A stretch of DNA of 34,409 bases from positions 1 through 34,409 of the forward strand of contig JAHDPQ010000139.1 in NCBI GenBank assembly GCA_018434245.1. The letters are read 5' to 3'. Source of the stretch: Oscillospiraceae bacterium (GTDB lineage: Bacteria; Bacillota; Clostridia; Oscillospirales; Ruminococcaceae). Shown here one piece after another: positions 17,201-34,405 of this stretch. The notes below the pieces were generated by a model. It ran no database searches. It was not told where the DNA came from and saw only the letters and a list, made by a program, of their open reading frames with translations. The position numbers and the translations under genes are program-made. Each line of letters opens with the position of its first letter. Within the stretch, counting starts at the first letter, position 1.

Positions 17201-17537
17201 CAGGAGAGGAGGGCAAAATAAAAACCACATAGTTATTAAATAACTACACGGCATTGGGGATTTGATCTCCTTTAAAGGCGAAGTTGCCGGTTTTGAATTG
17301 TCCAGTAAAAAGGTAGAAATTATGTATGTTCTCCTCCTGTTTTTATGCCATTGAAACAACTACTTCACTGTGATAAACTACTTATAAATCTACCAAACAA
17401 AATATTTTTTAAAGGATGGAGATTGAACTTTATGCTTGGGAAGCACGTATACAATCTCTATCGAAAACCTCTTAAAGATCTTGAATAATATACGGCCACC
17501 ACATTTAATGTATAAAATGACGGTAGGGGGATGGAAT
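17201..17537. other. AT-rich intergenic region before the two-component genes
   Basis: No credible gene. Base composition changes sharply here, from GC-rich to AT-rich. It contains the perfect palindrome TAGTTATT-A-AATAACTA at 17230-17246, a possible operator or element end. A -10-like TATAAA at 17511 could serve the response regulator, but without a good -35. Confidence 0.5.
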
Positions 17538-18230: not shown

Positions 18231-19656
18231 AAGCAGGATAGCAAAAAAACTGAGCGTTTACTTTATGGCTTCGCTGCTGATATTTTCGGTGACTATCGGC
18301 AGCTTTTTTATCATGCTGTTTAGAAATCACGTACTGAATATGCATAAAGACGAACTGCAAAAAAGAGCAGAGTCAATTGCAGAGACACTATCTGACTTTT
18401 ACGCAAGGGGGAACACCGAAGGTGGCAGAGGTGGTTATGGTGTATATATGCGTTTTATTGGCGAGATTGCCGGCGCAGACGTTTGGATAGTTGATGAAAA
18501 TTACAATCTTGTCACTGCCGGAAAAGGGCAAAATGGCAAAGCATATCACTATAACGATCTGCCGGAAAATGCAAGCGAGGTAATTGAAAAAGTATTTGAT
18601 GGCAAGACGTTTTTTAGCGAAAACTTTAGCAACGTGCTTTCTGAATTAACACTCACAGTAGGAGTTCCTATCATTGGCGCTGACAGTAGCATTACAGGTG
18701 CTGTACTGATACATTCACCTGTCGAGTCTATTAAGCAAACGTCAACACAAGGTATTGTTATACTAGCTGTGAGCATAGCACTTGCACTGCTTATCTCAAT
18801 AGTGCTGGGCATTGCTCTTTCGGTGTCCTTTACAAAACCGCTGAATAAAATGAAACAGACGGCACTTAGGCTATCAAAAGGGGATTATACTGTCCAAAAT
18901 GAAATTGTGCAAAATGATGAAATAGGAGATCTTGCAATTATTATTGACGAGCTTGCAAATCGACTTGAACTGGCAAAGCATGAGAGTGAGCGCTTGGAAG
19001 AAATGCGGAAGAGCTTTGTGACAAACATCTCTCATGAGCTTCGCACCCCTGTTACTGTTTTAAGAGGGTCTCTTGAGATATTATGTGATAAGATTGTAAC
19101 AGAACCTGATAAGATTGATAAATATCATACTCAAATGCTATCCGAAACAAGATTTTTAGAGCGTCTTGTGGGTGATTTACTTGACCTTTCGCGTTTGCAA
19201 AGTGCTGACTTTATCATTGAGAAAAATGAAGTTGATATGTGTGACCTATTGCCGGAGGTGATGCGTTCAGCCGTTCAACTTGCCTCTGAAAAGCAAATTG
19301 AGATTATTGCAGAAAAATGGATGATGGATAAAATAATTGACGGTGATTATAGCAGGCTAAGGCAAATGCTTATGATTGTACTTGATAATGCGATTAAATT
19401 CACCCCTAAAAGAGGAAAAATATGGGTTGATGTGAAAGATACTTGCATCAGCATAACAGACAGTGGAAAAGGCATTGATTCTGAATATTTGCCACATATA
19501 TTCGAAAGGTTTTATAAAACCCATGGCGAGCAAAATAAAACGGGTACCGGCCTTGGGCTTGCCATAGCAAAGCAGATAGCGGTACGGCATGGTATTGAGC
19601 TTATAGCAAAAAACAGCGAAAACAAAGGAGCAACCTTTGTATTTAAATTTCCGTAA
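18223..19656 (+). CDS. Membrane sensor histidine kinase
   Basis: A 477-residue kinase, partner of the preceding regulator. Transmembrane helix 1 is at about 10-33, an extracytoplasmic sensor domain at about 34-175, helix 2 at about 177-202, and a HAMP linker at about 200-255. The HisKA helix holds the phosphorylated H271 in FVTNISHELRTP. The ATPase domain shows the N box DNAIKFTP, the G1 box DSGKGID and the G2 box GTGLGLAIAKQ. The signal is unknown; a 140-residue outer domain suggests an extracellular or envelope cue. Its ATG at 18223 overlaps the regulator stop by 8 bases. Confidence 0.93.
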   Translation: MLKSRIAKKLSVYFMASLLIFSVTIGSFFIMLFRNHVLNMHKDELQKRAESIAETLSDFYARGNTEGGRGGYGVYMRFIGEIAGADVWIVDENYNLVTAGKGQNGKAYHYNDLPENASEVIEKVFDGKTFFSENFSNVLSELTLTVGVPIIGADSSITGAVLIHSPVESIKQTSTQGIVILAVSIALALLISIVLGIALSVSFTKPLNKMKQTALRLSKGDYTVQNEIVQNDEIGDLAIIIDELANRLELAKHESERLEEMRKSFVTNISHELRTPVTVLRGSLEILCDKIVTEPDKIDKYHTQMLSETRFLERLVGDLLDLSRLQSADFIIEKNEVDMCDLLPEVMRSAVQLASEKQIEIIAEKWMMDKIIDGDYSRLRQMLMIVLDNAIKFTPKRGKIWVDVKDTCISITDSGKGIDSEYLPHIFERFYKTHGEQNKTGTGLGLAIAKQIAVRHGIELIAKNSENKGATFVFKFP

Positions 19657-19757
19657 AAATTACCTCTGTAGCTGTATTAATGCAAGTGGTTATTATTAAT
19701 GCAAGGATTATAATATCATCAGTAGGTAAAACGATCACTTTTTACCTAATCAATGTG

Positions 19758-19787
19758 AAGCACCCTGTTATTGCAGGATGCTTTTTT
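19758..19787 (+). terminator. Intrinsic terminator after the kinase gene
   Basis: AAGCACCCTG (19758-19767) pairs with CAGGATGCTT (19774-19783) with one mismatch, 6-base loop, followed by a T7 tract. Confidence 0.88.
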
Positions 19788-19952
19788 TGTGCGAAAAATG
19801 ACATTGGTTTTCCCTTGAAACGCCCAAAGAAAAACACTCTGATGACAAAAAAGAAGATTAAAATTTCAATATCAACTAAAACGGGAGGGCAAAATGTATC
19901 ATACAAAACAAAATTAAAAATACCTTGTAATCGGTACATAAAAGACACACAG

Positions 19953-19980
19953 TAGACACAAAAGAAAGGTAAATTATAAT
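19953..19980 (+). promoter_or_regulatory. Promoter for the DUF2680-like gene
   Basis: TAGACA at 19953-19958 and TATAAT at 19975-19980 with a 16-base spacer, about 41 bases before the ATG. It means that the small secreted protein can be expressed apart from the kinase pair. Confidence 0.65.
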
Positions 19981-20021
19981 TAATAAAACCCCATGAATCA
20001 GTTTTAAAGGAGATTATCATT

Positions 20022-20894: not shown

Positions 20895-21416
20895 TTAATT
20901 GCTCTGCATAGGTGCACCGCACTCCGAACAGAATTTTTTGCCTGGGGGAACAACCTCCCCGCAGGAAGCACAGTGCATGGGCTCTTCTGTAAGAATGATC
21001 GGTGCCTCTTCTGCAGCGGGTTCCGGGGGAGTGATTGGCGTGCCGCATTCGGGGCAGAACTTTTTACCGAAAAGTACCGACGAACCACAGGCCCCGCAGG
21101 GGATACTTTCTTCCGCTGTGGTGTTCTGTTGTGCCGGCCCAGCTGTTGCCGCAGCTGTCTGGGGCGGCTCCTCCTTAATTTTTATAATCTCCTGATTAAA
21201 CGCCTGAATCGCCTCGTTGCTCGCCCTGATTGCAATGCAACATTCCATGGCTTCGTCATTTAGCTGTTCGCCGTTTTCAAACCTTGCCCAGTAAAGATCG
21301 GCTAGTTTTGTTTTTTGAGTTGCAATTTTACTTTTCTCTTCATTTATCTTGTTATTAATTTTGGAAACTTCCAGCATCTCACTGGTTTTGTCTCTTAGTT
21401 TATCAAAAAATGCCAT
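20895..21416 (-). CDS. Coiled-coil protein with two zinc ribbons
   Basis: A 173-residue soluble protein, last gene of the vWA cluster. Residues 1-85 are charged and helical, starting MAFFDKLRDKTSEMLEVSKI, and predict a coiled coil. A linker rich in alanine, proline and threonine follows. Two zinc ribbons occupy about 110-132 (CGACG...FCPECG) and 150-172 (CASCG...FCSECG). No enzyme domain. It is similar in design to the protein at 31751-32221, which shares a coil with a K-x-x-x-A-(D/E)-L-Y motif, so both may be adaptors for the same partner. Start at 21416 after AAGGTGG; a longer frame adds four residues. Confidence 0.75.
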   Translation of the reverse strand: MAFFDKLRDKTSEMLEVSKINNKINEEKSKIATQKTKLADLYWARFENGEQLNDEAMECCIAIRASNEAIQAFNQEIIKIKEEPPQTAAATAGPAQQNTTAEESIPCGACGSSVLFGKKFCPECGTPITPPEPAAEEAPIILTEEPMHCASCGEVVPPGKKFCSECGAPMQSN

Positions 21417-21490
21417 GGTTGTATCCACCTTTCATTATGTATTATTTTATGCCTAGAACAGAGGATGGCAGCATCTTTCGTTTTTTGGAA

Positions 21491-21925
21491 TTATTCCAAC
21501 AGCAGCTTGATAAGCTGTATGAGAGCGCTATAATTGGCAACAAAACCTATTATTGCAAGCAATAGAAACATTCCGCTGATAATGAGCACCGCACGGCAAT
21601 AGTTCTTTCTGGCACGGTTGGTTTTGGCGCCGAACGCCCACACAAAAGCGAGTATGATACCTATGATGGGCACTGAAAGCGCCAGCATGGTAAGAACATA
21701 ACCAAACACGCTCAGCTGTACGTTATTCTCTGCCGGCTTGGCAATGACGGAAACGGGAGCAGCTGCGGTAAAGATAGGCGCCGCAGCTTGCGGCGGGGGC
21801 GCTTGGTATGTCTGCGGCCGGGGGGCAGTCGGAACGGGGATGGGGATGCGGACTCCGCAATCGGGGCAGAATTTGGCCTCCGATTCCAGCTCTGCGCTGC
21901 AGGCAGTGCAAATTATTTTTGTCAT
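21491..21925 (-). CDS. Zinc-ribbon membrane protein
   Basis: A 144-residue protein with an N-terminal zinc ribbon (C6, C9, C20, C23), a proline/alanine-rich linker (about 28-65) and two hydrophobic segments (about 72-95 and 108-132). The zinc ribbon is expected in the cytoplasm. The start at 21925 is chosen because AGGAGG is 9 bases upstream; the ATG at 21934 would lie against the ribosome binding site. It follows the giant vWA gene by 18 bases, so it is probably co-translated with it. Family unknown; an anchoring or relay role is a guess. Confidence 0.75.
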   Translation of the reverse strand: MTKIICTACSAELESEAKFCPDCGVRIPIPVPTAPRPQTYQAPPPQAAAPIFTAAAPVSVIAKPAENNVQLSVFGYVLTMLALSVPIIGIILAFVWAFGAKTNRARKNYCRAVLIISGMFLLLAIIGFVANYSALIQLIKLLLE

Positions 21926-21943
21926 TCTACTCATCCTCCTGCT

Positions 21944-24900
21944 TTATAAATTATCAAAATAATACTGCAGCCCTGCATCAAAGCCATCTACAATGCTCGG
22001 AAGTGGTACATCAAGCTCCAACTGCAAGTGTGGCTTGCCGGGGATGTGATTCATCCATGGGTCGCCGCCTGCACTGCCGGGCACCATGGATCCTCTGGAA
22101 TTCGACGTCTTCATGCTCCAGCCTACGCCGCTCGGAGCGAGCTCTTTTGCGCTTTTAACAGCACCGACCATATCAAAAAAGTTGTGTACATACTCCGAAA
22201 CGGCACTGGCGTAACTTGCCGCCAGTTCAATTGCCTCTCCGTAGTCTCCGGTGATCAGATTAGCCGAGCACATGGACCATAGGCCAACATCAACACCCAC
22301 CATTGCGCCCACCGCATACTCCACATAGGCTGAACCATCGGGCGTTTTAAGCATATCTAAAAGGGCATATTCGGCAAATCCTCCGTGTTCGCCGGTGTCC
22401 AGGACAGCGATGGTTTCGCAGGTTTCAGCATCAATCTCCAACCATGCCCAGCGATCCTGCCCATCTATTTTCGAAGGCATATTCGGAATGATAAACATCT
22501 TGCCTTCGGACCCATTCGAAGCGCTTTCCATACTTTGCAGCAGCTTTTCGGGGAATTCGGCCTCCCGGAGAATCGGAAGATTGGCAAAAGTCGTGTCGCT
22601 GGCGATAACCAAGGTGACCGCATCTTTGGGAGCCTTTTCCCAAATGGTGGTAAAATCGTAGCCCTGCTTGCCCAGTGCCACACCCTCCATACGGGATGCG
22701 GTCAGCCCACTCATAATATGGAATGCGTCTGCCGCCTCTTTGCTGCCATTGTGGATTTGATTGACGACAGAAACAAGGTCGATGCTTGTAGCTATTGTTG
22801 CATCCTTTTCTTGCTTGCGTACCGTAACGGCAATGCAGCGCGGCTTTGTGGTTCTGCCTATGGTTAGCTTTAAGTCGGAGGCCAGCTTATCTTCAAAGGC
22901 AGTTTGCGCACCGATAAAGCGGTAGAGGTTGCCCCGGGTATACCAGCGCAGCGCAGAAACCTCATTGGGCGCTATGGCGCTCTTATGACTTACCTGAACA
23001 GCGTCATTGAGCTCTTTCAGTGCGTCCCCGGGCAGCTCGGGCAGGTTGATGCCAAGGGTTGTAAAAATGCTGTCCAGAGTTTCACCCTTTTTTAGGGTGA
23101 TTTCATGACTATAATCCTCCCCACCCACCGTCACGGTGATTTTTGTACCAATCGGCTGGTAATACTGTTTTGCAATCGCCACTTTGCTGATGACCCGGCC
23201 TGTGGGCGAATCCAGATAGGCGGTATAGGCTTCCCCCTGCGCTACTCCAAAGCCGATGTCGATGGCATCGTTGCTCAGGGCTTCCAGCTCAAGCTGCTCG
23301 CTGAGCATTTCAATTTCGATAGTTGCAGAATCGGTGACTTCGATGTCCTCCTCTCCACCCATCGCACCCGAAAAGCTGCCAAACAGGTTGCTGGTGTCCA
23401 GCAGGCCACTGGAATTTGCCGCATCCCCAAGGGGGATTGCCTCAACCATAACGGTGACGGTAGCCATTTCACTCGTCACCTCGATCTGCTCGCTTTCCGT
23501 TTGTGTCAGATAAACCGAACCGCTAAGCTGGGAAAGCTCCTGCATAAACGGAACTACCAACAGATGGTACTGACCAGTTGTATCCCGATAGGCAAGGGCG
23601 GGCAGGGTTTCGATATCCAGTTGATCGTAGTCTTCCAGCTGGAGATAGGCAGCCAGAGCTTTTTTACCCTCTTTTGTGAGGCGGACAGCCATCCTGTCCG
23701 GCCTTAGTCCAAGCCGGGAAAACAGCTGCTCCGCCAAAACCGCAAGATCAAATTCATTTCCCCAACCTTGGGTAAGCACTGCCTGGGGCGAAAGATTTGC
23801 AAACCATTCATTTGGGCTGTGCCTGTAAGACGGACGCCATGCCAGCCCGCGCAAAAGCTTCAAAACATCCTCCAGCGTTTGGGGATCTGCCAGCCTTTTC
23901 GCCCCTACCCCATTCAGCCCCGGAAAGGGGACATTGTGTTTGCCTGCACTCTGGACCAGGGTGACCACTTCGGGCTTTTGACCGCCACCTTGGGCCTTGG
24001 ACGCCTGCTCCCCTTGGTATTGCCGCACAACCTTTTCGATTTCCATAGCAGCTGCCTCGGCAAAGCTCTGGTCTTCATTTTCTATTTCCACATGTTGCGT
24101 CAGCAGCCCTTTGCGGGAAAAGCTTGTGCTTTGCGGTGTAAGCCTTAATCCCTGGAAAAACGGAGATTGCAGCGTGAACTGGCTGTCGGGCAACGCAAAC
24201 ACAAGCAGCCCGCGCCTGCTTTCGCCGTCCATTACGTTCCAACTGCTGTCAATGCCCAAAGCCAGTTGATTGGTTAAATCGCTGGGTGCGATAAAAAATT
24301 CATCCGCGCTGAAATCGCCAAGCCCCTCTTGTTCTACACCGTCCACTGTAATGGTGCCCTGCGCGCCGCCCTTCTTTATGCGATTGCTGACAAAGTGGAA
24401 TGCTTCGGCAATATCCCCGGTGCCAAAGCCATCCTTTTTATCGTAGACGGTGATATCGGCCACCACATAGACGATGCCTTCAGAGGATTCGCTGGGGTCC
24501 TCCTCGCTGGCTTCTTCCTCGGCAAGCTCCTCACTGAATTCTTCTTCGGCAGTTTCTTCCTCAACGGGCTCTTCCGCGTTGGCTCCTTCTTCGGCGGGCT
24601 CTTCGTCAAAGGCTTCTTCCTCGGTGTACTCTTCCTTGATGAGCTCCTCCCCAAAGAAGTCTTCCACGGCAAGTCGCTGCTGAAGCCGGTCAACGTCCTC
24701 CGCAGATAGCAAGCTAAGTTCGTTTATCGTAACATCCATCCACTCGCTTTTGTACTCACCCTTGCCCATGGAAGACGATACGCTTCCACCCTGGATTGGA
24801 ATGTGGAGGGCACCGTCGGCGATGTCGCCATAAATCTCCGCGCCCACGCCGGCAAGTTCCTTTGGAACAGCAAAAACCCAGCGGATGGGCGTAACTGACC

Positions 24901-27900
24901 CGGGCGCAAGGAGTTTTGGCTGCAAATAGCCCAGAGGGAGATAACCTGTCACCGGGCTGATTGGAATACGTACCGTCCCCTGATCGGTAGCGATATTTAA
25001 AAAGAAGCGCTCGGTGGGCATGATATCCAGCAGCGCCTGTACCTGAGAGGTGATTTCACCCTCCACAATGCGGTAAACTGTATCCTTAGACGCTTTGTGC
25101 TGCTGTACTTTATCCATATCGCTGTATGCTTTTGCCGTGAGGGTAAAGGAATCGGAAAGCTTTGCGGGCGCTGTACCTGATAGCTTTTGAAGTTGCATCT
25201 CACTTTTTTGTTTGCCGCCCATCAGCAGCATTTGGATATGCCCGTATGCGGTATCATAAAAATTTAGCTGCAAATCCAGAAGCTGCTGGGCGGGTACAAG
25301 AAAGATTAGAACACCTGCTGCCGTTTTGCCGGCGTCGATGGTAATTGCGTTTTCACCAGGATTTGCAAGGGGTGTTTGGGCAAGCCATGTCATAATAGAG
25401 GCGGGGTATGCCCCCAAATCATTGACGTTTAGATAGAAGTGCGATGCAAAATCGGGGATTTGAAGCGGCCGGTCAGAAAACAAATTCCTGAGCTGCAGAT
25501 TGACCGCAAGATATTCCATGCCGTTGGGTGCTTCAATACCCCGCAGCTTGCCTATGCGGTAATACTCGGTGGCAGCCATTTCAACTCCGCTGTTTTTATC
25601 CTTTGCCTCAAGCGGTACCCGGCTGATAACTTGGGTATCGGTGCTGGGGCTGTCGCCGCCGTACAGCAGCTGGGAAACCTGGGGGCTGTATGGTGCAAAA
25701 TCACCTTGGGCATCAGCGGCAGGGGGCTGGTTATTTGTACTCAGCCTCTTGGCAAAAAGCTGGGTACCGGGTTGTTTGGTCAAAATTTGAATGGCCTGAG
25801 GTGGCGCTTCTATTTTGCCAGAGCTGCTGAGCGGTGAAAGAGTTTGCTCTATGCTGGCGGAATAGCTCTGCAGCTTGCCCTCCTCGCTGGGCAGGGTGAT
25901 ATCCATGCGGATGACTGTTTTGTCGGTGGGGTTTTGCTGTTTTACTTCACCCAGCATTTTGTTCAGGCCATCGCTAAGCTCTTTGGCACTGTTGGGTAAA
26001 AGGTAGCTGCCCCCTGCGGTTTTTGCCGCCCAGGCAAAGTTTTCCTCATCTTCTTCCTGCTCCATCCCCAATCCTAGCCAAAGGCTTTTAATATCGGCCT
26101 CATTCATTTTTGTAAGAAGTTGACCAAACCTTTCGTTCTCTTTCCCTTCCATGGCGGCGTCGGTGAGAAACACTAAAATTCGGTTAGAGGTAGGGACACT
26201 CTTCAGGGTGTCGTAGGCCAGCTGTGCCGAATCTACAATATTGGTGCCTCCGCCGCCCTCCAGCGCAGAAACAGCCTGTAACATGGCCGCCTTATCGGTG
26301 GTGAGCACCTGCTCCAGCCACACATCTTCAAAGGTGATAAGCTGGGTCATAATCCCGTCGGGCATCTGCATAAAAAACTCCCGAAACATGTCCTTTGCGA
26401 TTCGCATTTTTGTGCCTTGACCCTCAATCAGCTCTTCCATCGAGCCACTGCAATCCAGAACCACCGTCACCACAGGAACATCCGTAACAGTTGCCTGCTG
26501 CGGGCGCTTGTACACTGCGGTGTAGGTGTTGCCCAAACGGGCGGCAATGGCGTCGAATACGTTTCTGAGCGCATCCTGATCACCTGCGGAGTAATATTTT
26601 CCTTCTGAAATATCCGCAAAGTCAACAAGGTCGGAGCCCCCGGCTTTTTGTGCTTCATCGGCCTGATCCGTTCCTGCACCTGCTTGCGCATCTTTTGCCG
26701 GAGAGGGGGCGTGTTCTTTGCCAAAGCCTATGGTATAAACCGGCACTCCGGCGGCTTTCATCGCCTCCACAACAACGCTTTTGTCGGTCAGCCCGCCGGG
26801 GGCAGGCTCATTTTTTCCGTCGGTAAACATGACAAGGGTGGGGCGTTGTGCACCTTGCAGCAGCTGCAGCACCATCATCGCCGAGTCATACAGTGCGGTG
26901 GAGCCGCCTGTAACGGCACTGTCCAGGCTGCTGAGCACCTCCGGCTTGGTTGTTCCGGGAAGCTTTCGCGCGGTGCTGTCAAAATCCACCACCTGAACGC
27001 TTGCGTTGTCGGGAAGCCCCTGCACAAACGCTTTGGCTGCCTCTACCGCCGGCTTCATCTGCTCCTCCATCGAGCCGGAGGAATCCAATAAGAGCACCAC
27101 GCTGGGCGGAATATCCAGCCGCTCAATGGAGATAATCTCCACCGGCCCACCGTTTTCATAAATACTGGTGGTTTGTTTGGTGGGGACAGCGTTTTTGTTC
27201 TCGCTGTCGTAGAGCAAAAACGTCAGCTCCACCTGCTCACCTTGCTCCTTTGGCGGATCCAAAAAGGTCATGCCATGCTCGGTTGTGCCCTCTCTCAAAT
27301 TGCCGGTTTGGGAAAAGATTGAGCCGAGATTGGAGGCCATCTCCACAACCGTCATCTCCCCCTCACTGATAGGAATGATTCTCGCACGGCTTGCGGTGCC
27401 CAGCACATCGGAAAAGATGTTCAGGTTCCAATAGCCGGATGGCAGCCAGAACAGAGTATCCCCCTCAGGAGTTTGATCCCCATAAAATGCTTCGTCGCCT
27501 TCGGCGATATCCGGATGGGATATGGAATAGAAGGTGTGCTCATCCACGGCATTGATCGGCACGCTCACCGAACCATAAGGTGCCCCCTTCACCAGCAGCG
27601 CACCCATATCCTCGCCGTATTTGACAGGCTCAAGATTGGCAATTTCACTAAGCGTGAACGAAACCGTTACTTCATCGCCGTCTACCGCAAAATCCCATAA
27701 AATATCTCCCGCTTCCTGGGGAATATCATCCAGGGTAAATACCTTGCTATTGGATGTGCCCGCAGCCAAAACAGTGGTATAGGATATTTCTCGGTTGTAT
27801 CTCCCTGCACGGTAGCCACCCTGCGCATGAATTTGAACCTCATCGTTTTCCCTAGCGCCGGTTAAGGTTACGATCAGGCTTTGCATGCGGCTGCCATTAT

Positions 27901-28543
27901 GCCTGGTGCTAAAAAACAGCCGGCCGGCTGTGCTCTCAGCCTTTGCCCTGTCCGCGGGCGTTATGGTTAAGGCTTTGCCCACTTGCAGGCGGCGCTCCCT
28001 GTAGAGCTCCATTTCGATGGATTGCCCGGGGATGATTGTTCCCCACCAGGCAAAGTCGTCTTCTTCCACAGAGAATACAATTTCCTCAGTGGCCGAAGAA
28101 AGAAGCTCTCCGCCTAAGTCCAGAATGTATTTTTCAAGATGGAGCAGGGCGTCAGGTGCGTCATCCTGTAAATCCATTACCCAGTGGTCACCCGCCACCC
28201 TGCGCGTTGTCAGCCGATAGTCCTTGTTCATGTACCGGATTTCACCCTCGGCATACTCTTTTCTTACACTGTCGTAACTGCTTTCATCTCCAAGGGGGTC
28301 AATCAAGGGCTTTTCGGTTGTCCAATTCCCCTGCCTCAAAGGATATTTTGTCTCGAATCCTTTGGGGAAATGCTCGGCGGGCACAACCTGAAGCCCTATA
28401 CCCACCGGTACAGGGCGCAGATTACCAGCAGCTTTTAGTACCTTGACCTTACCGGTAAGTCGTTCGATTGCGCCGCTACAACCTGAGAGCAGCAGCAGAC
28501 AGCAAAGCAGCAGGGCCAGTGCGGTGCGTAGCTTTTGTTTCAT
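21944..28543 (-). CDS. Giant lipoprotein with two tandem vWA domains
   Basis: A 2199-residue exported protein. The signal peptide ends in the lipobox LLSGC (C22). Residues about 40-470 are beta-rich and of unknown family. vWA domain 1 is at about 480-665 with the metal-site motif DSSGS at 487-491, T549 and D575; vWA domain 2 is at about 690-865 with DCSGS at 697-701, T767 and D795. Both have complete MIDAS residues, so both should bind a divalent metal and a ligand. Residues about 1005-1110 look like a DUF4352-type beta sandwich. Residues 1296-1356 are almost entirely Glu/Asp/Ser, a flexible acidic spacer. Residues about 1555-1680 (GWGNEFDLAVLAEQLFSRLG) are weakly transglutaminase-like, without the usual cysteine. 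No LPXTG or C-terminal membrane anchor is seen. The start at 28543 follows AGGAGG and gives the signal peptide; an upstream start adds 34 unlikely residues. Confidence 0.85.
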   Translation of the reverse strand: MKQKLRTALALLLCCLLLLSGCSGAIERLTGKVKVLKAAGNLRPVPVGIGLQVVPAEHFPKGFETKYPLRQGNWTTEKPLIDPLGDESSYDSVRKEYAEGEIRYMNKDYRLTTRRVAGDHWVMDLQDDAPDALLHLEKYILDLGGELLSSATEEIVFSVEEDDFAWWGTIIPGQSIEMELYRERRLQVGKALTITPADRAKAESTAGRLFFSTRHNGSRMQSLIVTLTGARENDEVQIHAQGGYRAGRYNREISYTTVLAAGTSNSKVFTLDDIPQEAGDILWDFAVDGDEVTVSFTLSEIANLEPVKYGEDMGALLVKGAPYGSVSVPINAVDEHTFYSISHPDIAEGDEAFYGDQTPEGDTLFWLPSGYWNLNIFSDVLGTASRARIIPISEGEMTVVEMASNLGSIFSQTGNLREGTTEHGMTFLDPPKEQGEQVELTFLLYDSENKNAVPTKQTTSIYENGGPVEIISIERLDIPPSVVLLLDSSGSMEEQMKPAVEAAKAFVQGLPDNASVQVVDFDSTARKLPGTTKPEVLSSLDSAVTGGSTALYDSAMMVLQLLQGAQRPTLVMFTDGKNEPAPGGLTDKSVVVEAMKAAGVPVYTIGFGKEHAPSPAKDAQAGAGTDQADEAQKAGGSDLVDFADISEGKYYSAGDQDALRNVFDAIAARLGNTYTAVYKRPQQATVTDVPVVTVVLDCSGSMEELIEGQGTKMRIAKDMFREFFMQMPDGIMTQLITFEDVWLEQVLTTDKAAMLQAVSALEGGGGTNIVDSAQLAYDTLKSVPTSNRILVFLTDAAMEGKENERFGQLLTKMNEADIKSLWLGLGMEQEEDEENFAWAAKTAGGSYLLPNSAKELSDGLNKMLGEVKQQNPTDKTVIRMDITLPSEEGKLQSYSASIEQTLSPLSSSGKIEAPPQAIQILTKQPGTQLFAKRLSTNNQPPAADAQGDFAPYSPQVSQLLYGGDSPSTDTQVISRVPLEAKDKNSGVEMAATEYYRIGKLRGIEAPNGMEYLAVNLQLRNLFSDRPLQIPDFASHFYLNVNDLGAYPASIMTWLAQTPLANPGENAITIDAGKTAAGVLIFLVPAQQLLDLQLNFYDTAYGHIQMLLMGGKQKSEMQLQKLSGTAPAKLSDSFTLTAKAYSDMDKVQQHKASKDTVYRIVEGEITSQVQALLDIMPTERFFLNIATDQGTVRIPISPVTGYLPLGYLQPKLLAPGSVTPIRWVFAVPKELAGVGAEIYGDIADGALHIPIQGGSVSSSMGKGEYKSEWMDVTINELSLLSAEDVDRLQQRLAVEDFFGEELIKEEYTEEEAFDEEPAEEGANAEEPVEEETAEEEFSEELAEEEASEEDPSESSEGIVYVVADITVYDKKDGFGTGDIAEAFHFVSNRIKKGGAQGTITVDGVEQEGLGDFSADEFFIAPSDLTNQLALGIDSSWNVMDGESRRGLLVFALPDSQFTLQSPFFQGLRLTPQSTSFSRKGLLTQHVEIENEDQSFAEAAAMEIEKVVRQYQGEQASKAQGGGQKPEVVTLVQSAGKHNVPFPGLNGVGAKRLADPQTLEDVLKLLRGLAWRPSYRHSPNEWFANLSPQAVLTQGWGNEFDLAVLAEQLFSRLGLRPDRMAVRLTKEGKKALAAYLQLEDYDQLDIETLPALAYRDTTGQYHLLVVPFMQELSQLSGSVYLTQTESEQIEVTSEMATVTVMVEAIPLGDAANSSGLLDTSNLFGSFSGAMGGEEDIEVTDSATIEIEMLSEQLELEALSNDAIDIGFGVAQGEAYTAYLDSPTGRVISKVAIAKQYYQPIGTKITVTVGGEDYSHEITLKKGETLDSIFTTLGINLPELPGDALKELNDAVQVSHKSAIAPNEVSALRWYTRGNLYRFIGAQTAFEDKLASDLKLTIGRTTKPRCIAVTVRKQEKDATIATSIDLVSVVNQIHNGSKEAADAFHIMSGLTASRMEGVALGKQGYDFTTIWEKAPKDAVTLVIASDTTFANLPILREAEFPEKLLQSMESASNGSEGKMFIIPNMPSKIDGQDRWAWLEIDAETCETIAVLDTGEHGGFAEYALLDMLKTPDGSAYVEYAVGAMVGVDVGLWSMCSANLITGDYGEAIELAASYASAVSEYVHNFFDMVGAVKSAKELAPSGVGWSMKTSNSRGSMVPGSAGGDPWMNHIPGKPHLQLELDVPLPSIVDGFDAGLQYYFDNL

Positions 28544-28814
28544 GGAAGTTCCTCCTGTTCGCAAGAATGCTGGAATGGAAGGGAGTTTTTTGTGGAATTT
28601 CCTGCAAACCAACTCTGTTTTTGCCGCACTGTTGGCAAGGGCCATGGCGCACGGCCTGCATCGGGCAGCTTTGTACCGCCGCCAATTACAAAAATTATGA
28701 TTGGGAAGTTATTGTCCTTAGAATGATCTGCTGCGTTCCCGTACTACCCGCCTTAAATATGTTGCTGGGTTTTTCAGTTATGCCTTTGTTTTCTGGATTA
28801 TTTCTCTTTTTCTT
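28544..28814. other. Intergenic region upstream of the vWA gene
   Basis: A 271-base gap, the largest inside the cluster. No credible gene or clear promoter is seen, though the length leaves room for a separate promoter or leader for the vWA gene. Confidence 0.4.
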
Positions 28815-29312
28815 TTATATTTTTTCCTCCCACGCTACCGTGATGCTGAGGGTTTTGTCTGTCGTATAAGTGAGAATAACGCCAGTGCCCTTGCTGCTTT
28901 TCGCTGCATAGGTTACATTTCCGTCCGACTGCATATCATAGGCTTCCTCGGTAAAGGTCTCCTTGATTTCATTCAGGTAATCTGCAAAGTCTTTCTCAGA
29001 TGCTTCTTCCAGGATGATCAACAGAGAATCCTTTGTTTCCATCACAGAGATAACCTTGCCGCCTTTGAATTCGGGAATGCTTTTTGCCAGGTCGGATGAG
29101 GGCCATTCGCCCTCTCCAATGGTTAACTCCTGGCCATCTTCCCCCTTGATGACCACCTTGTCACCAGTAATGTCTGCATCCACTCCGGCGTCCCCAAGAA
29201 TCTTTTCCGCAAGGGCCTCTGCGGCCTTTTCCTCCAGTTTTTTCTTTGCCCCGCATCCGGCAAAAGAGAGGGCCAGCAAAAGAGCCAACAACCCGACTAA
29301 AATCTTTTTCAT
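28815..29312 (-). CDS. Small lipoprotein with W-P-S-x-D-L motif
   Basis: A 165-residue lipoprotein with lipobox FAGC (C20). A lysine/alanine/glutamate-rich helix follows (21-45), then DADITGDKVVIKGEDGQ and the segment GEWPSSDLAKSIPEFKGGKV at about 67-86, then a mixed alpha/beta domain. The same W-P-S-x-D-L...P-E-x-K-G pattern occurs in the neighbouring lipoprotein at 29356-30183, so the two share a domain, probably recognising the same thing or each other. No catalytic motif. GAGGAAGAG precedes the ATG. Function unknown. Confidence 0.75.
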   Translation of the reverse strand: MKKILVGLLALLLALSFAGCGAKKKLEEKAAEALAEKILGDAGVDADITGDKVVIKGEDGQELTIGEGEWPSSDLAKSIPEFKGGKVISVMETKDSLLIILEEASEKDFADYLNEIKETFTEEAYDMQSDGNVTYAAKSSKGTGVILTYTTDKTLSITVAWEEKI

Positions 29313-29355
29313 AATATCTCTTCCTCACCGTTAAACGCAGCTGTTTACAGCCGCC

Positions 29356-30183
29356 CTATTTCTGATATTCGATGGATACAAGGTTTTCCTCACCTTTATA
29401 GGCAAAGCTCATCATGCTGCTGTCCTTAAAAGCGAGAAATTCCATATGGTCGCTGTCTATATCCGGCTGCGTATCAAAGCTAAAGCCTGACGCTGTTAAT
29501 TCACCAATGTAACTTTTCACCGTTTCAGCAGTTTCCACCGTAATCTCAAGCCGGATGATACCCTCTTCCCGCAGGATTTGGCCTATGTGGCCCTTTAACT
29601 CCGGGACTCCGGGCAGATCTGCGGAGGGCCATGTTTCTCCATCTCCCTCGGGCATCTGGCTTTCACCGCCGGATACGCCTTTCAATCCGGTTAGAACGAT
29701 GTATACGGATATTTTTCCGGCATATTGGGGGTTGGGATTCATAGCGTCTTTACTAAGCATAATGGTATACCCAACACCATCCATTTTGGCAGAAATCATA
29801 TAACCGTCCGACGTTTCCGCTACACTTAAATCTTTCGCATCCTTCAGTGCGCCCTCATATAAATCATGCAGTGTATCCATATCGCTGTCACTGACATAGC
29901 TAACTTCCAGACCGTTATTGGCAGGGTTTTCCCTCACATCAATAATTTCGGCGTCCGCCGTCAGTGGTAAGATTTCCCTGGGATAGATGGCTGGAAGTGC
30001 TTTGGAATTAATGGCAGTTTCGTTTTGAGGTGTATTGAAATCACCAGGCGTTTTACTTGGTTTGGGTGTCGCTGTGGTTGCTCCACCGCTTGTCTCTTTT
30101 GGGGCAGAACCTTCTGCCCCGCCGCAGCTGGCAAGCGTCAAAATCAATACAGACATTAAAAGAAAAAGTGCAATCCGCTTCAT
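29356..30183 (-). CDS. Lipoprotein sharing a domain with its neighbour
   Basis: A 275-residue lipoprotein with lipobox LASC (C20), a Thr/Pro/Ser-rich linker to about residue 60, and two similar alpha/beta halves: about 65-170 and 180-275. The second half begins with ETWPSADLPGVPELKGHIGQ, matching the smaller lipoprotein 43 bases downstream. Its second half may be the ancestral unit, with the first half a diverged copy, but this is inferred by eye. AGGAGAA precedes the ATG. Function unknown. Confidence 0.75.
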   Translation of the reverse strand: MKRIALFLLMSVLILTLASCGGAEGSAPKETSGGATTATPKPSKTPGDFNTPQNETAINSKALPAIYPREILPLTADAEIIDVRENPANNGLEVSYVSDSDMDTLHDLYEGALKDAKDLSVAETSDGYMISAKMDGVGYTIMLSKDAMNPNPQYAGKISVYIVLTGLKGVSGGESQMPEGDGETWPSADLPGVPELKGHIGQILREEGIIRLEITVETAETVKSYIGELTASGFSFDTQPDIDSDHMEFLAFKDSSMMSFAYKGEENLVSIEYQK

Positions 30184-30228
30184 ATCAGTTCTCCTGACAT
30201 TAATATAATTTTTTTAAAAGTCCACGCC

Positions 30229-30591
30229 TTATTTCAGAATAGTAAACTTGCCGATCAGGGGCAGCCTCTTTGCTTTTCCGCCGAATCCATTAATGAGTCC
30301 CATAATACCCAATATCAAAACGCCGATGCCGAAAAACGGAAGCAGCATCCAGCCGATCACGGGTATGATACCTAGGATTACGTTGCCCGCTATTCCTGTA
30401 ATCAAGAGCAGCAGCGATTGATTGGCATGGAATTTGGCATATTGGGATTCGGGGCAGGTAATCAGCGGCAAAAAGAACAGCAAATAAGAAAGTCCAGCCA
30501 TAGTCTTGTTTTTCTCGATATCCTCCGGGGTATAGGCGTTTTCCTGTGCTGTCAGCTCCTGATTTTCCAGATTGTTTTTTTGCTCTGTCAT
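30229..30591 (-). CDS. Small multi-pass membrane protein (DUF4870-like)
   Basis: A 120-residue protein with a charged N-terminal stretch (about 1-28) and about three hydrophobic segments: GLSYLLFFLPLI, SLLLLITGIAGNVILGIIPV and LLPFFGIGVLILGIMGLING. The KFHANQSLLLL motif between the first and second is typical of DUF4870-like small membrane proteins in Firmicutes, whose role is unknown. The start at 30591 has GGAGG 8 bases upstream; the ATG at 30597 is an alternative. It sits between the zinc-ribbon genes and the lipoprotein genes, possibly bridging cytoplasmic and surface members. Confidence 0.75.
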   Translation of the reverse strand: MTEQKNNLENQELTAQENAYTPEDIEKNKTMAGLSYLLFFLPLITCPESQYAKFHANQSLLLLITGIAGNVILGIIPVIGWMLLPFFGIGVLILGIMGLINGFGGKAKRLPLIGKFTILK

Positions 30592-30662
30592 GTTCATTCC
30601 CTCCAAAATTTTGATATTTGTTTGCGTTCGGTAATCTTAGGCCAGTTTCCCTTTCTATGTCG

Positions 30663-31415
30663 TTACAGTTTTCTGCCGCAGCCGCCGCAGAATTTGGTGC
30701 CGGGCGAATTTTCTGCACCACATCCAGAACACTTGGCAACGGCTGGCGCCGCCATGGATGAACCGCAGTGATTACAGAAGCGCACTCCCTGCGCATTTTC
30801 CGCCTTGCATTTGGGGCAAACCGCCAGTGCCAGCGACGCACCGCAGTTGTTGCAGAACTTGCCTGTTCCGGTAGGCTTGCCGCAGGTGGGGCAGACGGTT
30901 GTCTTGCTTTCCAGTTTGCCCTTCCAGACAACGGCGCTTTCAGCTGTTTCCTCAATGTTGCGCCGCATGGCGTCGGCACGAGCCTTGGCTACCGAAATTT
31001 CCTGCCGGGGGGCACATTCGGTGCACAGGCCCTCGTCCTCGTTATAGCAGGAATCACACACCCATTTACGGCAGCCGTGACAGCGATGGAAGTGCTGTTG
31101 GGCTTCGTTTTTTGCCCGCTCAAAGGCTTTTTCATGTTCCTTCTGCCATTCGGGGCTCATCCCCTCGAACCGATCGGACAAAACGTTTCCGCCCCGCTCC
31201 AGTGAATAGCCGAGGTTTCCCAGGCGACCGCCAAGCAGACTGCCCAGCACGCCCGCACCCTGGGCCAATCCCCGCAGTCCGCGGCCCTTTCTGTAGGTTT
31301 CGGATTCAATGAAGCTGCTTTTATATCCATCCTCACAGAGATCGCAGTAAAAGGTAAACTGGAACCCCGCCTCGGTGGAGTTGTCTTCATAATTCCTTGT
31401 GAAGGATTGCAGCAT
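30663..31415 (-). CDS. Multi-zinc-ribbon protein with central treble-clef-like module
   Basis: A 250-residue cytoplasmic protein. An N-terminal CxxC (C24, C27 in FTFYCDLCEDGY) is followed by a glycine-rich amphipathic stretch (about 45-80; GLAQGAGVLGSLLGGRLGNL), a helix, and a cysteine-rich module near 110-140 (HRCHGCRKWVCDSCYNEDEG then CTEC). A helical linker (145-168) leads to three C-terminal zinc ribbons (CPTCG...FCNNCG, CPKCK...FCNHCG, CSGCG...FCGGCG). It shares the N-terminal and central modules with the 32218-32559 protein. The cysteine module looks like a protein-protein or nucleic-acid binding fold. GAGGTGAACTT precedes the ATG, 4 bases after the previous gene. Confidence 0.75.
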   Translation of the reverse strand: MLQSFTRNYEDNSTEAGFQFTFYCDLCEDGYKSSFIESETYRKGRGLRGLAQGAGVLGSLLGGRLGNLGYSLERGGNVLSDRFEGMSPEWQKEHEKAFERAKNEAQQHFHRCHGCRKWVCDSCYNEDEGLCTECAPRQEISVAKARADAMRRNIEETAESAVVWKGKLESKTTVCPTCGKPTGTGKFCNNCGASLALAVCPKCKAENAQGVRFCNHCGSSMAAPAVAKCSGCGAENSPGTKFCGGCGRKL

Positions 31416-31419
31416 AAGT

Positions 31420-31764
31420 TCACCTCATTTTCTTAACGGGTTTCATTTTTTTGCCGCAGGCGGTGCATTTTGTATTTTCAAAGAATTGCTGTGCGCCGCA
31501 GCGGGGGTTTTGGCATTGGATCATCAATGATGCACTGCATTGTTCGCATTTCTCCCCCGCAAAAGTCGGCTTACCGCAGGCGGGGCAAGGAATAGATAGC
31601 GCCCTGCCGCAGCCGGAGCAAAGAGGCTGACCCTTTTCTATGGGGCGCAGGCAGGTGGGGCAAAGATACCCAAAAGGGTTTATGCTTTGACAGGAGGGAC
31701 AAAAACGGCAATCCGGCTCTATGTATGTACCGCAGTGGATACACGGCTGCTTATATGAAGCCAT
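31420..31764 (-). CDS. Protein of four tandem zinc ribbons
   Basis: A 114-residue protein made almost entirely of CxxC knuckles: CIHC, CPSC, CPTC, CSGC, CPAC, CEQC, a C-x4-C (CQNPRC) and CTAC, giving four zinc-ribbon units in a row (double-zinc-ribbon style), with a short basic tail KKMKPVKKMR. No other domain. The start at 31764 has AGGAGG at good spacing; the frame is open further upstream but that part overlaps the preceding gene. It overlaps the preceding gene by 14 bases. It is probably an adaptor or scaffold. Confidence 0.75.
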   Translation of the reverse strand: MASYKQPCIHCGTYIEPDCRFCPSCQSINPFGYLCPTCLRPIEKGQPLCSGCGRALSIPCPACGKPTFAGEKCEQCSASLMIQCQNPRCGAQQFFENTKCTACGKKMKPVKKMR

Positions 31765-32221
31765 GTTGTTCCTCCTGCTTTTTACCACACTCTCCGCAAA
31801 AGCGGGTACTGGGCGGCAAAGGCGCCCCACACCGGCTGCAAAGGACTGCCCCAAGCTTGGCGCCACACTCCCGGCAAAACTTTACGCCATCGGGGTTTAC
31901 ATTGCCGCATGAGGGGCAGATCGATTTCTCATCTTCTGCACGCTGGGCCGCTTCTTTGGCCTCTTTTTCTGATTGTACGCTTTGCAGCTTGGCCTGCGCC
32001 GCAGACAGGTTTTCCTGTACCAGACGCAGCTTGTTTTCCAGCTCTGGATACTGGACGCAGCCTTCTGCCAAGGTCTGTCGCCCAATCTGCGCATAGAGCT
32101 CGGCCTCCTGCTTTTGCAGGTCGCTCACTTCCGATCCGGCCATCATCAGCTTTACATCCGGGTCGTCCTGGGGCATAAAGCCGGAAAGCCCCTTCATCAG
32201 TCCTCCGAACAGATCGCTCAT
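31751..32221 (-). CDS. Coiled-coil protein with two C-terminal zinc ribbons
   Basis: A 156-residue protein. The first 30 residues (MSDLFGGLMKGLSGFMPQDD) are amphipathic, residues about 32-98 predict a coiled coil, and zinc ribbons lie at about 101-121 (CPSCG...FCREC) and 126-147 (CSRCG...FCGEC). The layout parallels the last gene of the cluster (20895-21416). Its ATG overlaps the stop of the preceding gene in ATGA, a sign of coupling. Confidence 0.75.
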   Translation of the reverse strand: MSDLFGGLMKGLSGFMPQDDPDVKLMMAGSEVSDLQKQEAELYAQIGRQTLAEGCVQYPELENKLRLVQENLSAAQAKLQSVQSEKEAKEAAQRAEDEKSICPSCGNVNPDGVKFCRECGAKLGAVLCSRCGAPLPPSTRFCGECGKKQEEQHGFI

Positions 32222-32559
32222 CTTTCTTCATCCTTTCCTGCTTCAAATTGTGGGGCGCCGCAGACGGCGCAAAACGCGTCTCCTTTTGACACGGGAGCCT
32301 TGCATCGGGTACAGATGCGAGGGACACAGTCTGTACACATCATTCGATTCTCGTTAAAGTGTTCATCGCATACCCACCGGTGGCAGCAAGCGCATCGGTT
32401 GAAATGTAACCGTGCGTCCTGTTCTCCCAAATGCAGGGCCTTTTTAGGGGTATCACAGACAAGGGTTGGGGTGGTATATCCACCGCCGCAGACTTCACAG
32501 AAGAAGGTTAGGCGAAAGCCGGTGGCTTCCCGCACCGTGCGGCATTTTGCCGTAAACAT
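32218..32559 (-). CDS. Small zinc-binding protein, short paralogue of the 30663-31415 protein
   Basis: A 113-residue protein from the ATG at 32559. It has FRLTFFCEVCGGGY near the N terminus, a HFNRCACCHRWVCDEHFNEN cysteine/histidine module, then CTDC, and one C-terminal zinc ribbon (CTRCK...FCAVCG). The first two modules match the 250-residue protein two genes downstream, which carries extra glycine-rich and zinc-ribbon parts. The start is uncertain: an ATG at 32583 would add eight residues, but the one at 32559 has GAGGG at better spacing and aligns better with the paralogue. First intact gene of the minus-strand cluster. Confidence 0.72.
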   Translation of the reverse strand: MFTAKCRTVREATGFRLTFFCEVCGGGYTTPTLVCDTPKKALHLGEQDARLHFNRCACCHRWVCDEHFNENRMMCTDCVPRICTRCKAPVSKGDAFCAVCGAPQFEAGKDEER

Positions 32560-32569
32560 GGGAAGCCCT

Positions 32570-32830
32570 CTATCCATCCTCATGGCCCGTACCTTCGCTT
32601 TCTTTACCTTGTGCCTTCACGCTTTCCAAACCGGTAATGAAAGCGCTGAGCTTTTGCAAGCTAAAATGATCCAGTTGATAAACGGCCTCAATGATTTCAT
32701 CCTGCAGCCGCTTTATCCGATTATTTTGCACCGCATCATCCTCTTTCTCAATAGCATAAAACGCTTGACTGGGTTAGGTCGGTTTGGTAATATATAGGCA
32801 GTAATCCGGTTGTTTTTCTATTTCATCATA
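32570..32830 (-). pseudogene. Decayed small gene at the head of the cluster
   Basis: One minus-strand frame reads like protein for 86 codons: YDEIEKQPDYCLYITKPT, then an in-frame TAA (32776-32774), then PSQAFYAIEKEDDAVQNNRI and a helical stretch (LQDEIIEAVYQLDHFSLQKL) to a TAG at 32570. There is no start codon and a TAG precedes the reading frame. Its end overlaps the possible 32583 start of the next gene, as in a coupled operon. It is most simply a broken first gene; the family is not recognised. Confidence 0.5.
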
Positions 32831-32850: not shown

Positions 32851-32904
32851 AATCATCCCGGGGGTGATTGTCAAGTTAAAATAGGGGTGATTTTTGGGGT
32901 GATT
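32851..32904 (+). repeat. Repeated GGGGTGATT boxes between divergent genes
   Basis: GGGGTGATT occurs at 32861-32869, 32884-32892 and 32896-32904, and the first copy faces an inverted partial copy (AATCATCCC at 32851-32859), forming a near-palindrome. A TTGACA on the minus strand (32874-32869) lies between the boxes. The arrangement looks like an operator controlling the divergent lipoprotein gene, the minus-strand cluster, or both. Confidence 0.55.
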
Positions 32905-33016: not shown

Positions 33017-34405
33017 ATGTTGATGAAAAAGAAATGTGTCGTTTGGGTACTGTTGCTGTCCGTCCTACTGTCTGCCTGTGGACAGACAAGCGGATGGAAC
33101 CCGAACAGTCCGATAACCCTTACCCTGTGGCATAATTTTGGCGGACAGATGCAGGCCACAATGGATGAGCAGATCGAAGAGTTTAACGCCACGGTTGGCA
33201 AGGAAAAGGGCATTGTCATAAGCGTCACCTCTATTTCAGGCTCAGCTGCTTTGCAAGAGAAGCTGACCATGATCGCTGCGGGTGACCCAGGTGCGCCTGA
33301 AATGCCCAATATTACCACCTGTTATCCTGCTACGGCAACGCTGCTTGCGGACAAAGGGCTGCTTGTACCGATGGATGGTTACTTTACCGATGCGGAACTC
33401 GCGGACTATCTGCCCCAGTTTCTAGAGGAAGGCCGGCTGCCCGACGGAAAGCTCTATGTGTTTCCCTTTGCCAAATCCACCGAGGTGCTTTTTCTAAACC
33501 AAACGCTGTTCGAGCGTTTTTCATCAGCCACCGGGATTACAGCGGACAGCCTTGCCACCTTTGAAGGGATCGCCAGGGCTGCGATGCAATATTACCGGTG
33601 GACTGATGAGCAGACGCCAGACATACCAAACGATGGAAAATTCTTTTATTCTACCGATTCATTTTTCAATCTGGCTCAGGTTGGAATGGAGCAGATGGGG
33701 ACCTCTCTCTTTCACCGAGAGAAACTTCGGATGAACACACCGGAATTCGAGCGGATCTGGAATGCTGTTTTTGAACCGGCAGTAAAGGGCGGCTACGCCA
33801 TTTATGACGGCTATTCCTCGGATCTTTCCAAGACGGGCGATATCCTTTGTTCCACAGGATCGACAGCGGGCATTCTCTTTTATGGAGAGGAAATTACCTA
33901 TCCAAATAACACAAAAGAAAGGGTAGAATACGCTGTTCTACCGTACCCAGTCTTTGAAGCTGGCAAAAAAATCGCCATTCAGAGAGGCAGTGGCCTGGTA
34001 GTGGCAAAATCCACACCGGAAAAAGAAGCGGCGGCCGCTCTGTTCCTGAAATGGTTTGCCTCCCCGGAACAGAACATGCGCTTTGTGGCATCTACCGGCT
34101 ATCTACCGGTGACCGGACGGGCTTTTACCAACCACATGGAGCAAGAAATTGCCAAAAACAATAACCCAAATATTCAAAAACTACTGCGTACCGCTATGGA
34201 TGTTTACAAGGAATATGATTTTTATATACCGCCGGTGTTTGATGGCTTCAATCTCATCAGCGGCGATTTTGAGGCCGGGTTCTTTGCCATTGCCCAGAAA
34301 AGGCGGGAGCAGTATTTGGAAAACCTGCAAATAATGGAGTCGCAGGCCGCCTATGAGAAGGCGGCAAGTGGCGCCCTAAAAGAGTTTATCGCAGCACAGC
34401 CATAA
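33017..34405 (+). CDS. Solute-binding lipoprotein of an ABC transporter (family 1)
   Basis: A 462-residue exported lipoprotein with lipobox LLSAC (C21), followed by ITLTLWHNFGGQMQATMDEQ, the start typical of family 1 solute-binding proteins for sugars and related compounds. Further family features are EFNATVGKEKGIVISV, MPNITTCYPATATLLADKGL, KLYVFPFAKSTEVLFLNQ and the late FLKWFASPEQNMRFVASTGY. The ligand cannot be told. GGAAGGA lies just upstream of the ATG at 33017; an ATG at 33023 is the alternative. Permease or sensor genes would be expected next, beyond the window, which ends 4 bases after the stop. Confidence 0.9.
   Translation: MLMKKKCVVWVLLLSVLLSACGQTSGWNPNSPITLTLWHNFGGQMQATMDEQIEEFNATVGKEKGIVISVTSISGSAALQEKLTMIAAGDPGAPEMPNITTCYPATATLLADKGLLVPMDGYFTDAELADYLPQFLEEGRLPDGKLYVFPFAKSTEVLFLNQTLFERFSSATGITADSLATFEGIARAAMQYYRWTDEQTPDIPNDGKFFYSTDSFFNLAQVGMEQMGTSLFHREKLRMNTPEFERIWNAVFEPAVKGGYAIYDGYSSDLSKTGDILCSTGSTAGILFYGEEITYPNNTKERVEYAVLPYPVFEAGKKIAIQRGSGLVVAKSTPEKEAAAALFLKWFASPEQNMRFVASTGYLPVTGRAFTNHMEQEIAKNNNPNIQKLLRTAMDVYKEYDFYIPPVFDGFNLISGDFEAGFFAIAQKRREQYLENLQIMESQAAYEKAASGALKEFIAAQP

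What the first reader, a model, noticed from the sequence alone, without database searches (positions are those of the whole stretch)
20895..32583. Candidate new system: giant vWA lipoprotein with a family of zinc-ribbon partners
Ten same-strand genes, several overlapping or nearly abutting, combine four cytoplasmic zinc-ribbon proteins, a small membrane protein, two related lipoproteins, a 2199-residue lipoprotein with two intact vWA metal sites, a zinc-ribbon membrane protein and a coiled-coil zinc-ribbon protein. No known operon that I recognise has this content. It may form a membrane-spanning machine in which zinc-ribbon adaptors inside meet a metal-dependent adhesion or sensing surface protein outside.
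Basis: partly seen in the sequence, partly recalled or inferred. Interest (0 to 1): 0.8.

Follow-up and report, generated by a model that had tools for sequence, protein, structure and literature searches.

The report
Co-regulated zinc-ribbon and surface-lipoprotein regulon
Some clostridial bacteria carry a set of small zinc-binding proteins, membrane proteins and a giant surface lipoprotein that appears to be switched on together by its own sensor for something outside the cell; what the set does is still unknown.

Summary
In detail: ten same-strand genes (32583-20895) are as described; an eleventh small ORF (32731-32570) precedes them. Zinc-ribbon genes P3 (31764-31420) and P4 (31415-30663) are adjacent in 10 of 12 loci with full-length P4; P2 is present in 7 of 12; P1, DUF4870-like, DUF6591 and vWA genes recur less often. 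A distant genome (vWA identity 33%) has P3-P4-vWA-P2 in a row. The vWA protein is not the centre: four of five distant vWA genes stand alone. New here: a palindromic operator (ATCACC-N4-GG[AG]TGAT, with AATCACCCC copies) lies upstream of the window operon, of related operons, and of an unlinked vWA gene in a genome whose zinc-ribbon operon carries the same 17-bp core. A double half-site search of 391 genomes hit five places, four of them system loci. Six of seven genomes with a particular membrane LuxR-type receptor have the operator; none of ten others searched do. The receptor gene usually lies beside a solute-binding lipoprotein like the window's 33017-34405. Best reading: a sensor-controlled cell-envelope regulon with a zinc-ribbon complex inside the membrane. 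Function is not shown.

The parts
32852..32868 (-). palindromic operator core ATCACC-N4-GGATGAT
   Evidence: exact match; same element upstream of related operons and of an unlinked vWA gene
32861..32904 (-). direct copies of AATCACCCC
   Evidence: double half-site pattern: 5 places in 391 genomes, 4 of them system loci; the fifth lies inside a gene
32570..32731 (-). small ORF (53 aa, GTG start), possible first gene
   Evidence: frame seen; look-alike before the P1-like gene of L099, similarity judged by eye
32218..32583 (-). P1, zinc-ribbon protein sharing part of P4's N-terminal domain
   Evidence: P1-like or P4-N-terminus-like small genes in L097, L099, L104, L105
31751..32221 (-). P2, hydrophobic N-terminus, helical stretch, two zinc ribbons
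   Evidence: present in 7 of 12 P4 loci
31420..31764 (-). P3, all-zinc-knuckle protein, about 114 aa
   Evidence: next to P4 in 10 of 12 loci
30663..31415 (-). P4, 250-aa zinc protein, the most conserved member
   Evidence: 58-81% identity to 11 homologues
30229..30591 (-). P5, two-TM DUF4870-like protein
   Evidence: 72% in L095, 53% in L101, 35% in L035
29356..30183 (-). P6, lipoprotein
28815..29312 (-). P7, DUF6591 lipoprotein
   Evidence: 42% in L104 and L105, 26% in L101
21944..28543 (-). P8, 2199-aa lipoprotein with two vWA domains
21491..21934 (-). P9, zinc ribbon plus two TM
   Evidence: follows P8 in L005 and L018, follows P4 in L099 at 34%
20895..21416 (-). P10, helical region plus two zinc ribbons
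   Evidence: follows P9 in L018 and, cut after 30 residues by the contig end, in L005
33017..34405 (+). divergent solute-binding-protein lipoprotein
   Evidence: SBP_bac_8 E 5.5e-29; 49-55% identical proteins beside the system in L099, L101, L104, L105

Best explanation
The genes are the main transcription unit of a sensor-controlled cell-envelope regulon. Inferred chain: a solute-binding lipoprotein (33017-34405) and a membrane LuxR-type receptor encoded next to it sense something outside the cell; the receptor's HTH binds the ATCACC-N4-GG[AG]TGAT palindrome and the AATCACCCC copies; the operon is expressed. P3, P4 and P2 then form a zinc-ribbon complex on the inner face of the membrane, joined to it through P5 and P9, while P6, P7 and P8 act outside, P8 binding a ligand through its two MIDAS sites. 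Shown by sequence: recurrent neighbourhood, shared operator, receptor/operator co-occurrence, conserved MIDAS. Inferred: DNA binding by this receptor, complex formation, membrane contact, ligand binding and the purpose (my guess: envelope maintenance or remodelling).
For: Neighbourhood: P3-P4 adjacent in 10 of 12 loci, P2 in 7 of 12; P1-P2-P3-P4 in L099, P2-P3-P4-P5 in L095, P5-lipoprotein-P7-P3-P4-P2 in L101, P3-P4-vWA-P2 in L070. Fresh phylum draw: P3-P4 adjacent in 4 of 5 strong P4 loci. Operator: palindrome at 15 places in 17 genomes, 6 upstream of system genes and 9 inside other ORFs; reversed-pattern control 0. Double half-site at 5 places in 391 genomes, 4 at system loci, the fifth inside a gene. 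In G683 the zinc-ribbon operon and an unlinked vWA gene carry the same 17-bp core. Receptor profile: 7 of 17 genomes; SBP profile: 7 of 17. Operator at a system locus in 6 of 7 receptor genomes and 0 of 10 others; Fisher p 0.0014 with the own genome left out. SBP and receptor genes adjacent in L101, L104, L105, L143 and, cut by the contig end, L099; receptor beside P5 in L095. In the own genome the SBP ends 4 bases before the end of C93 and the receptor frame reaches within 1 base of the end of C177. L044 fuses zinc ribbons, TM and DUF6591.
Against: No binding, expression or interaction data. Distant vWA genes in G435, G605, G471 and a second one in G578 stand alone on the visible DNA; the first three lack the motif and the last has one half-site. 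P4 loci L036, L096, L097, L098, L100, L102 and L103 lack the operator, so this regulation is lineage-specific. G446 has receptor and SBP but no recognisable operator. G677, counted as without receptor, has a weaker SBP/LuxR-like pair (34% and 22%) and no operator. L019's vWA gene has no zinc-ribbon gene upstream; its downstream side is not visible. The 17 genomes were chosen for holding a system gene and the motif was first seen by eye in two of them; for G004 the upstream DNA is not visible. The P7-P8 gap has no operator. None of the ten same-genus genomes shows a full-length P4 match. Of six other-genome DUF6591 loci whose flanks I fetched (L044-L049), only L044 has relatives of P1-P4.
Confidence: 0.5

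Rival explanations
1. The zinc-ribbon proteins are a general cytoplasmic module (P3-P4 with an unnamed partner X), and the membrane and surface genes are accidental operon companions in a few lineages.
For: X lies beside P4 or P3-P4 in 4 of 12 class loci (L036, L097, L102, L103) and in 5 of 5 strong phylum loci, weakly in one of them; vWA in only 2 of 12 class loci.
Against: The vWA gene and the zinc-ribbon operon share an operator when unlinked in G683; DUF4870-like or DUF6591 genes recur with P1/P2/P4 relatives in two other families (f66: L095, L101; f46: L104, L105); zinc-ribbon/DUF6591 fusion in L044.
Confidence: 0.25
2. The zinc-ribbon proteins are nucleic-acid-binding regulators rather than adaptors.
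For: The best PDB profile matches of the P4 family are zinc ribbons of DNA polymerase D and similar proteins; a paper on Psp describes the YdjG zinc ribbon as a DNA-binding type (PMC9239133, one passage).
Against: Those polymerase matches cover profile positions 151-222 only and are weak (E 2.5e-4 or worse); the LuxR HTH already accounts for regulation.
Confidence: 0.12
3. An anti-phage or conflict system.
For: Patchy spread: P4 is 81% identical in two genomes of other families but 58% in an order-mate, as expected after horizontal transfer or uneven loss.
Against: PADLOC gave only weak matches, E 0.0041 or worse; no P8 in plasmids, no A7 relative in viral contigs, no P4 in phages and two partial zinc-ribbon matches in plasmids; no nuclease, toxin or NTPase match among the ten proteins.
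Confidence: 0.05

Closest known systems
pspA-ydjGHI operon of Bacillus subtilis
   Same: An operon of membrane and zinc-finger-bearing proteins that work together at the membrane under envelope stress (PMC8581546, start of abstract and passages; PMC9239133, one passage)
   Different: No PspA or SPFH match among the ten proteins; SigW control there, a putative SBP/LuxR receptor here; no vWA lipoprotein mentioned in the passages seen
TerY-type vWA with zinc-ribbon partners (recalled; PMC11090510 seen only in a search listing)
   Same: vWA domain plus zinc-ribbon partners
   Different: Here the vWA domains sit in a lipoprotein predicted outside the cell; no kinase or phosphatase match among the ten proteins in Pfam
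DUF6591 family (PF20234)
   Same: P7 matches above cut-off
   Different: Family of unknown function; no paper in the library holds the name

Membership tests
vWA domain proteins (PF00092/PF13519) | profile match above curated cut-off | tested here: met
   P8: PF13519 E 1.2e-24, two stretches; 6 of 6 members of A12 match
vWA domain proteins (PF00092/PF13519) | intact MIDAS residues D-x-S-x-S...T...D | tested here: met
   both sites the same in 6 of 6
DUF6591 lipoproteins | PF20234 above cut-off in P7 | tested here: met
   42.6 bits, cut-off 27.1
DUF6591 lipoproteins | PF20234 above cut-off in P6 | tested here: not met
   no Pfam match at E 0.1
DUF4870 | PF09685 above cut-off in P5 | tested here: not met
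   22.7 bits, cut-off 25; the L105 protein next to the P1-like gene reaches 33 bits
PspA-YdjGHI system | PspA or SPFH gene in the operon | tested here: not met
   no such Pfam match among the ten proteins
Known anti-phage defence systems | convincing PADLOC profile match | tested here: not met
   only weak partial matches, E 0.0041 or worse
LuxR-type membrane receptor controlling the operon | GerE HTH plus TM segments, gene beside the system | tested here: met
   GerE above cut-off in 3 of 3 receptors tested (L101, L104, L105); beside the system in L095, L101 (after the SBP), L104, L105; TM by hydropathy only
LuxR-type membrane receptor controlling the operon | binds the palindrome | not testable with these tools
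   co-occurrence only

The most novel reading that the evidence does not exclude
A previously undescribed transmembrane system: an SBP-coupled LuxR receptor induces a zinc-ribbon scaffold on the inner membrane face, which works with surface lipoproteins, including a giant dual-MIDAS protein, to sense or remodel the clostridial envelope.
Probability: 0.35. Interest if true: 0.8.

Novelty: new variant of a known kind. Interest (0 to 1): 0.6.

Why it matters
It ties several protein families without known function (P3, P4, partner X, DUF6591 lipoproteins, the giant vWA lipoprotein) into one regulon with a defined operator and a candidate receptor, so that ligand, regulator and effector become testable one by one. 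Small zinc-ribbon proteins are numerous in these genomes (many partial matches) and largely without assigned roles.

Tried and rejected
P8 homologues were sought first among relatives (2 of 61) and in the order (own genome only of 394); a three-row profile over the class was needed. Of the 9 of 391 genomes there, G455, G642, G649 and G754 were dropped because they match only an acidic stretch of about 50 positions; G683 was missed because its vWA contig ends early. Of 24 of 391 genomes (own included) have full-length P4; 13 match only part, of which I looked at G738 and G755. Of 14 of 194, I looked at 10 besides the own; G049, G938 and G903 match only the ribbon region. Five weaker phylum P4 relatives (36-38%) show neither P3 nor X (0 of 5). 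A transglutaminase-like look of the P8 C-terminus was dropped: the recalled cysteine position is W, Y or F, Pfam gave no match at E 0.05 or better, and the only PDB match is a SusD homologue at E 0.0077 over the last 105 positions. The SBP profile has no PDB match at E 1e-10. 'PH-like' for partner X was an impression; three X proteins gave no Pfam match. Literature: five-term search 1 paper, DUF6591 0, DUF4870 with zinc ribbon 0, LuxR/SBP 1, TerY 3, YdjGHI with PspA 5, TcaA/zinc ribbon/teichoic 0, zinc ribbon/DUF4352/lipoprotein 0; only two of these papers were opened, for passages.

Full report
Observation. The window is a whole contig (G000:C93). ORF calling and translation confirm ten minus-strand genes, here P1-P10 from 32583 to 20895. 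P1-P2 and P2-P3 overlap, P3-P4 nearly abut, P8-P9 are 9 nt apart, and P7-P8 are 271 nt apart. P2, P3, P4 and P10 have zinc-ribbon matches above cut-off; P1 and P9 fall below it. P8 has a lipobox and two vWA domains; the rest has only a weak DUF4352 match and no convincing PDB match.

Conserved neighbourhood. P8 is rare: own genome only of 394 in the order for its C-terminal part, 2 of 61 relatives, and in the class draw of 391 genomes five with long matches, own included. A scan with record titles gave three Clostridia MAG contigs. P9 and P10 follow P8 in L018 and L005 (L005 ends inside P10). The P4 family is wider: 11 of 391 genomes with full-length matches. In 12 loci with full-length P4 (window, L036, L070, L095-L103), P3 is next to P4 in 10, P2 is present in 7, P5 in 3, P1-like in 3, P7-like in 2, P8 in 2. 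Several contigs end nearby, so absences are not all real. L070 (G578) has P3-P4-P8-P2 in a row with 56, 67, 33 and 49% identity to the window proteins. L099 has P1-P2-P3-P4, a P9-like gene and a lipoprotein. L104 and L105 have a P1-like gene with P7 (42%), and L105 a DUF4870 gene between them.

Fresh test. In a phylum draw of 194 genomes, of five strong P4 relatives besides the own genome, four have X, P3, P4 in that order and one has P4 followed by a weak X match. Five weaker relatives have neither. X is a family of roughly 310-500 aa; three members tested had no Pfam match, and in L103 it is split over two ORFs. The widespread core is therefore P3-P4, often with X; the membrane and surface genes look like a lineage-specific addition.

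Operator. Comparing upstream DNA showed AATCACCCC copies or the palindrome ATCACC-N4-GG[AG]TGAT upstream of the window operon, L095, L101, L104, L105 and the unlinked vWA gene of L019; L070 has the double half-site and the second vWA gene of that genome (L072) a single one. In 17 genomes the palindrome occurs at 15 places: 6 upstream of system genes and 9 inside other ORFs (reversed control 0). The double half-site occurs at 5 places in 391 genomes: window, G683 zinc-ribbon operon, G683 vWA gene, G578 operon, and one inside a gene of G447. L019 and G683:C84 have the same length and the same sequence around the site and are taken as one contig, so in one genome two loci on different contigs share the element.

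Receptor. The SBP lipoprotein at 33017-34405 has 49-55% identical relatives beside the system in L099, L101, L104 and L105. Next to it in L101, L104, L105 and L143 lies a 534-569-aa protein with TM segments by hydropathy; a C-terminal LuxR HTH was confirmed by Pfam in the first three and matched by the profile in L143. Profile searches found this receptor in 7 of 17 genomes and the SBP in 7 of 17; G683 has only the receptor (its contig ends beside it), G677 only the SBP above threshold, with a 22% receptor-like neighbour. Six of seven receptor genomes have the operator at a system locus (G578 by half-sites); 0 of 10 others do (for G004 the upstream DNA is not visible). Fisher p is 0.0014 with the own genome left out; leaving out G578 as well, where the motif was also first seen, gives 5/1365, about 0.004, worked out by hand. 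The genomes were chosen for holding system genes, so this supports rather than proves. In the own genome the SBP lies at the end of C93 and the receptor at the end of C177, as expected if they adjoin; no joining was done.

Mechanism. The receptor-operator step is supported by co-occurrence but unproven. That P2-P4 work at the membrane is inferred from the hydrophobic N-terminus of P2 and P0018, an amphipathic glycine-rich segment computed for the P4 homologue P0016, the TM and lipoprotein partners, and a natural fusion of zinc ribbons, TM and DUF6591 in L044. The nearest studied analogue I found is B. subtilis pspA-ydjGHI, an envelope-stress operon in which membrane proteins recruit a complex (PMC8581546, passages).

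Spread. P4 is 81% identical between the window and two genomes of other families but 58% to an order-mate, which fits horizontal transfer or uneven loss; no tree was built.

Noticed in passing
L095:5729-7562: A macro-domain-like protein (recalled, by eye) and a small vWA protein without TM (PF00092) lie upstream of the P2-P5 operon in G683.
   Followed up: partly
L044:7657-10456: Zinc ribbon-TM-double DUF6591 fusion next to a gene that looks like an SPFH protein by eye.
   Followed up: partly
L035:4446-10402: Zinc-ribbon gene, lipoprotein-like gene and DUF4870-like gene (35% to P5) near two LuxR-HTH genes.
   Followed up: partly
window 17436-19656: Two-component system genes in or beside an AT-rich stretch (38% GC at 18001-20000).
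   Followed up: no
window 31973-32797: 274-aa plus-strand ORF antisense to P1 and P2, probably spurious; an antisense ORF likewise hides P3 in L101.
   Followed up: no
window P8 about residues 1330-1395 and the same region of L018 (P0011): Acidic E/D-rich linker of very different length among P8 homologues.
   Followed up: no
L073:10473-16739 and L074:4625-11005: P8 homologues without an obvious lipobox, with an N-terminal hydrophobic segment instead (L074 is flagged lipobox-like by the loose script test).
   Followed up: no
L144:130-2326: G446 carries a receptor relative on contig C105 in addition to the one cut off at the start of C13 (L099).
   Followed up: no
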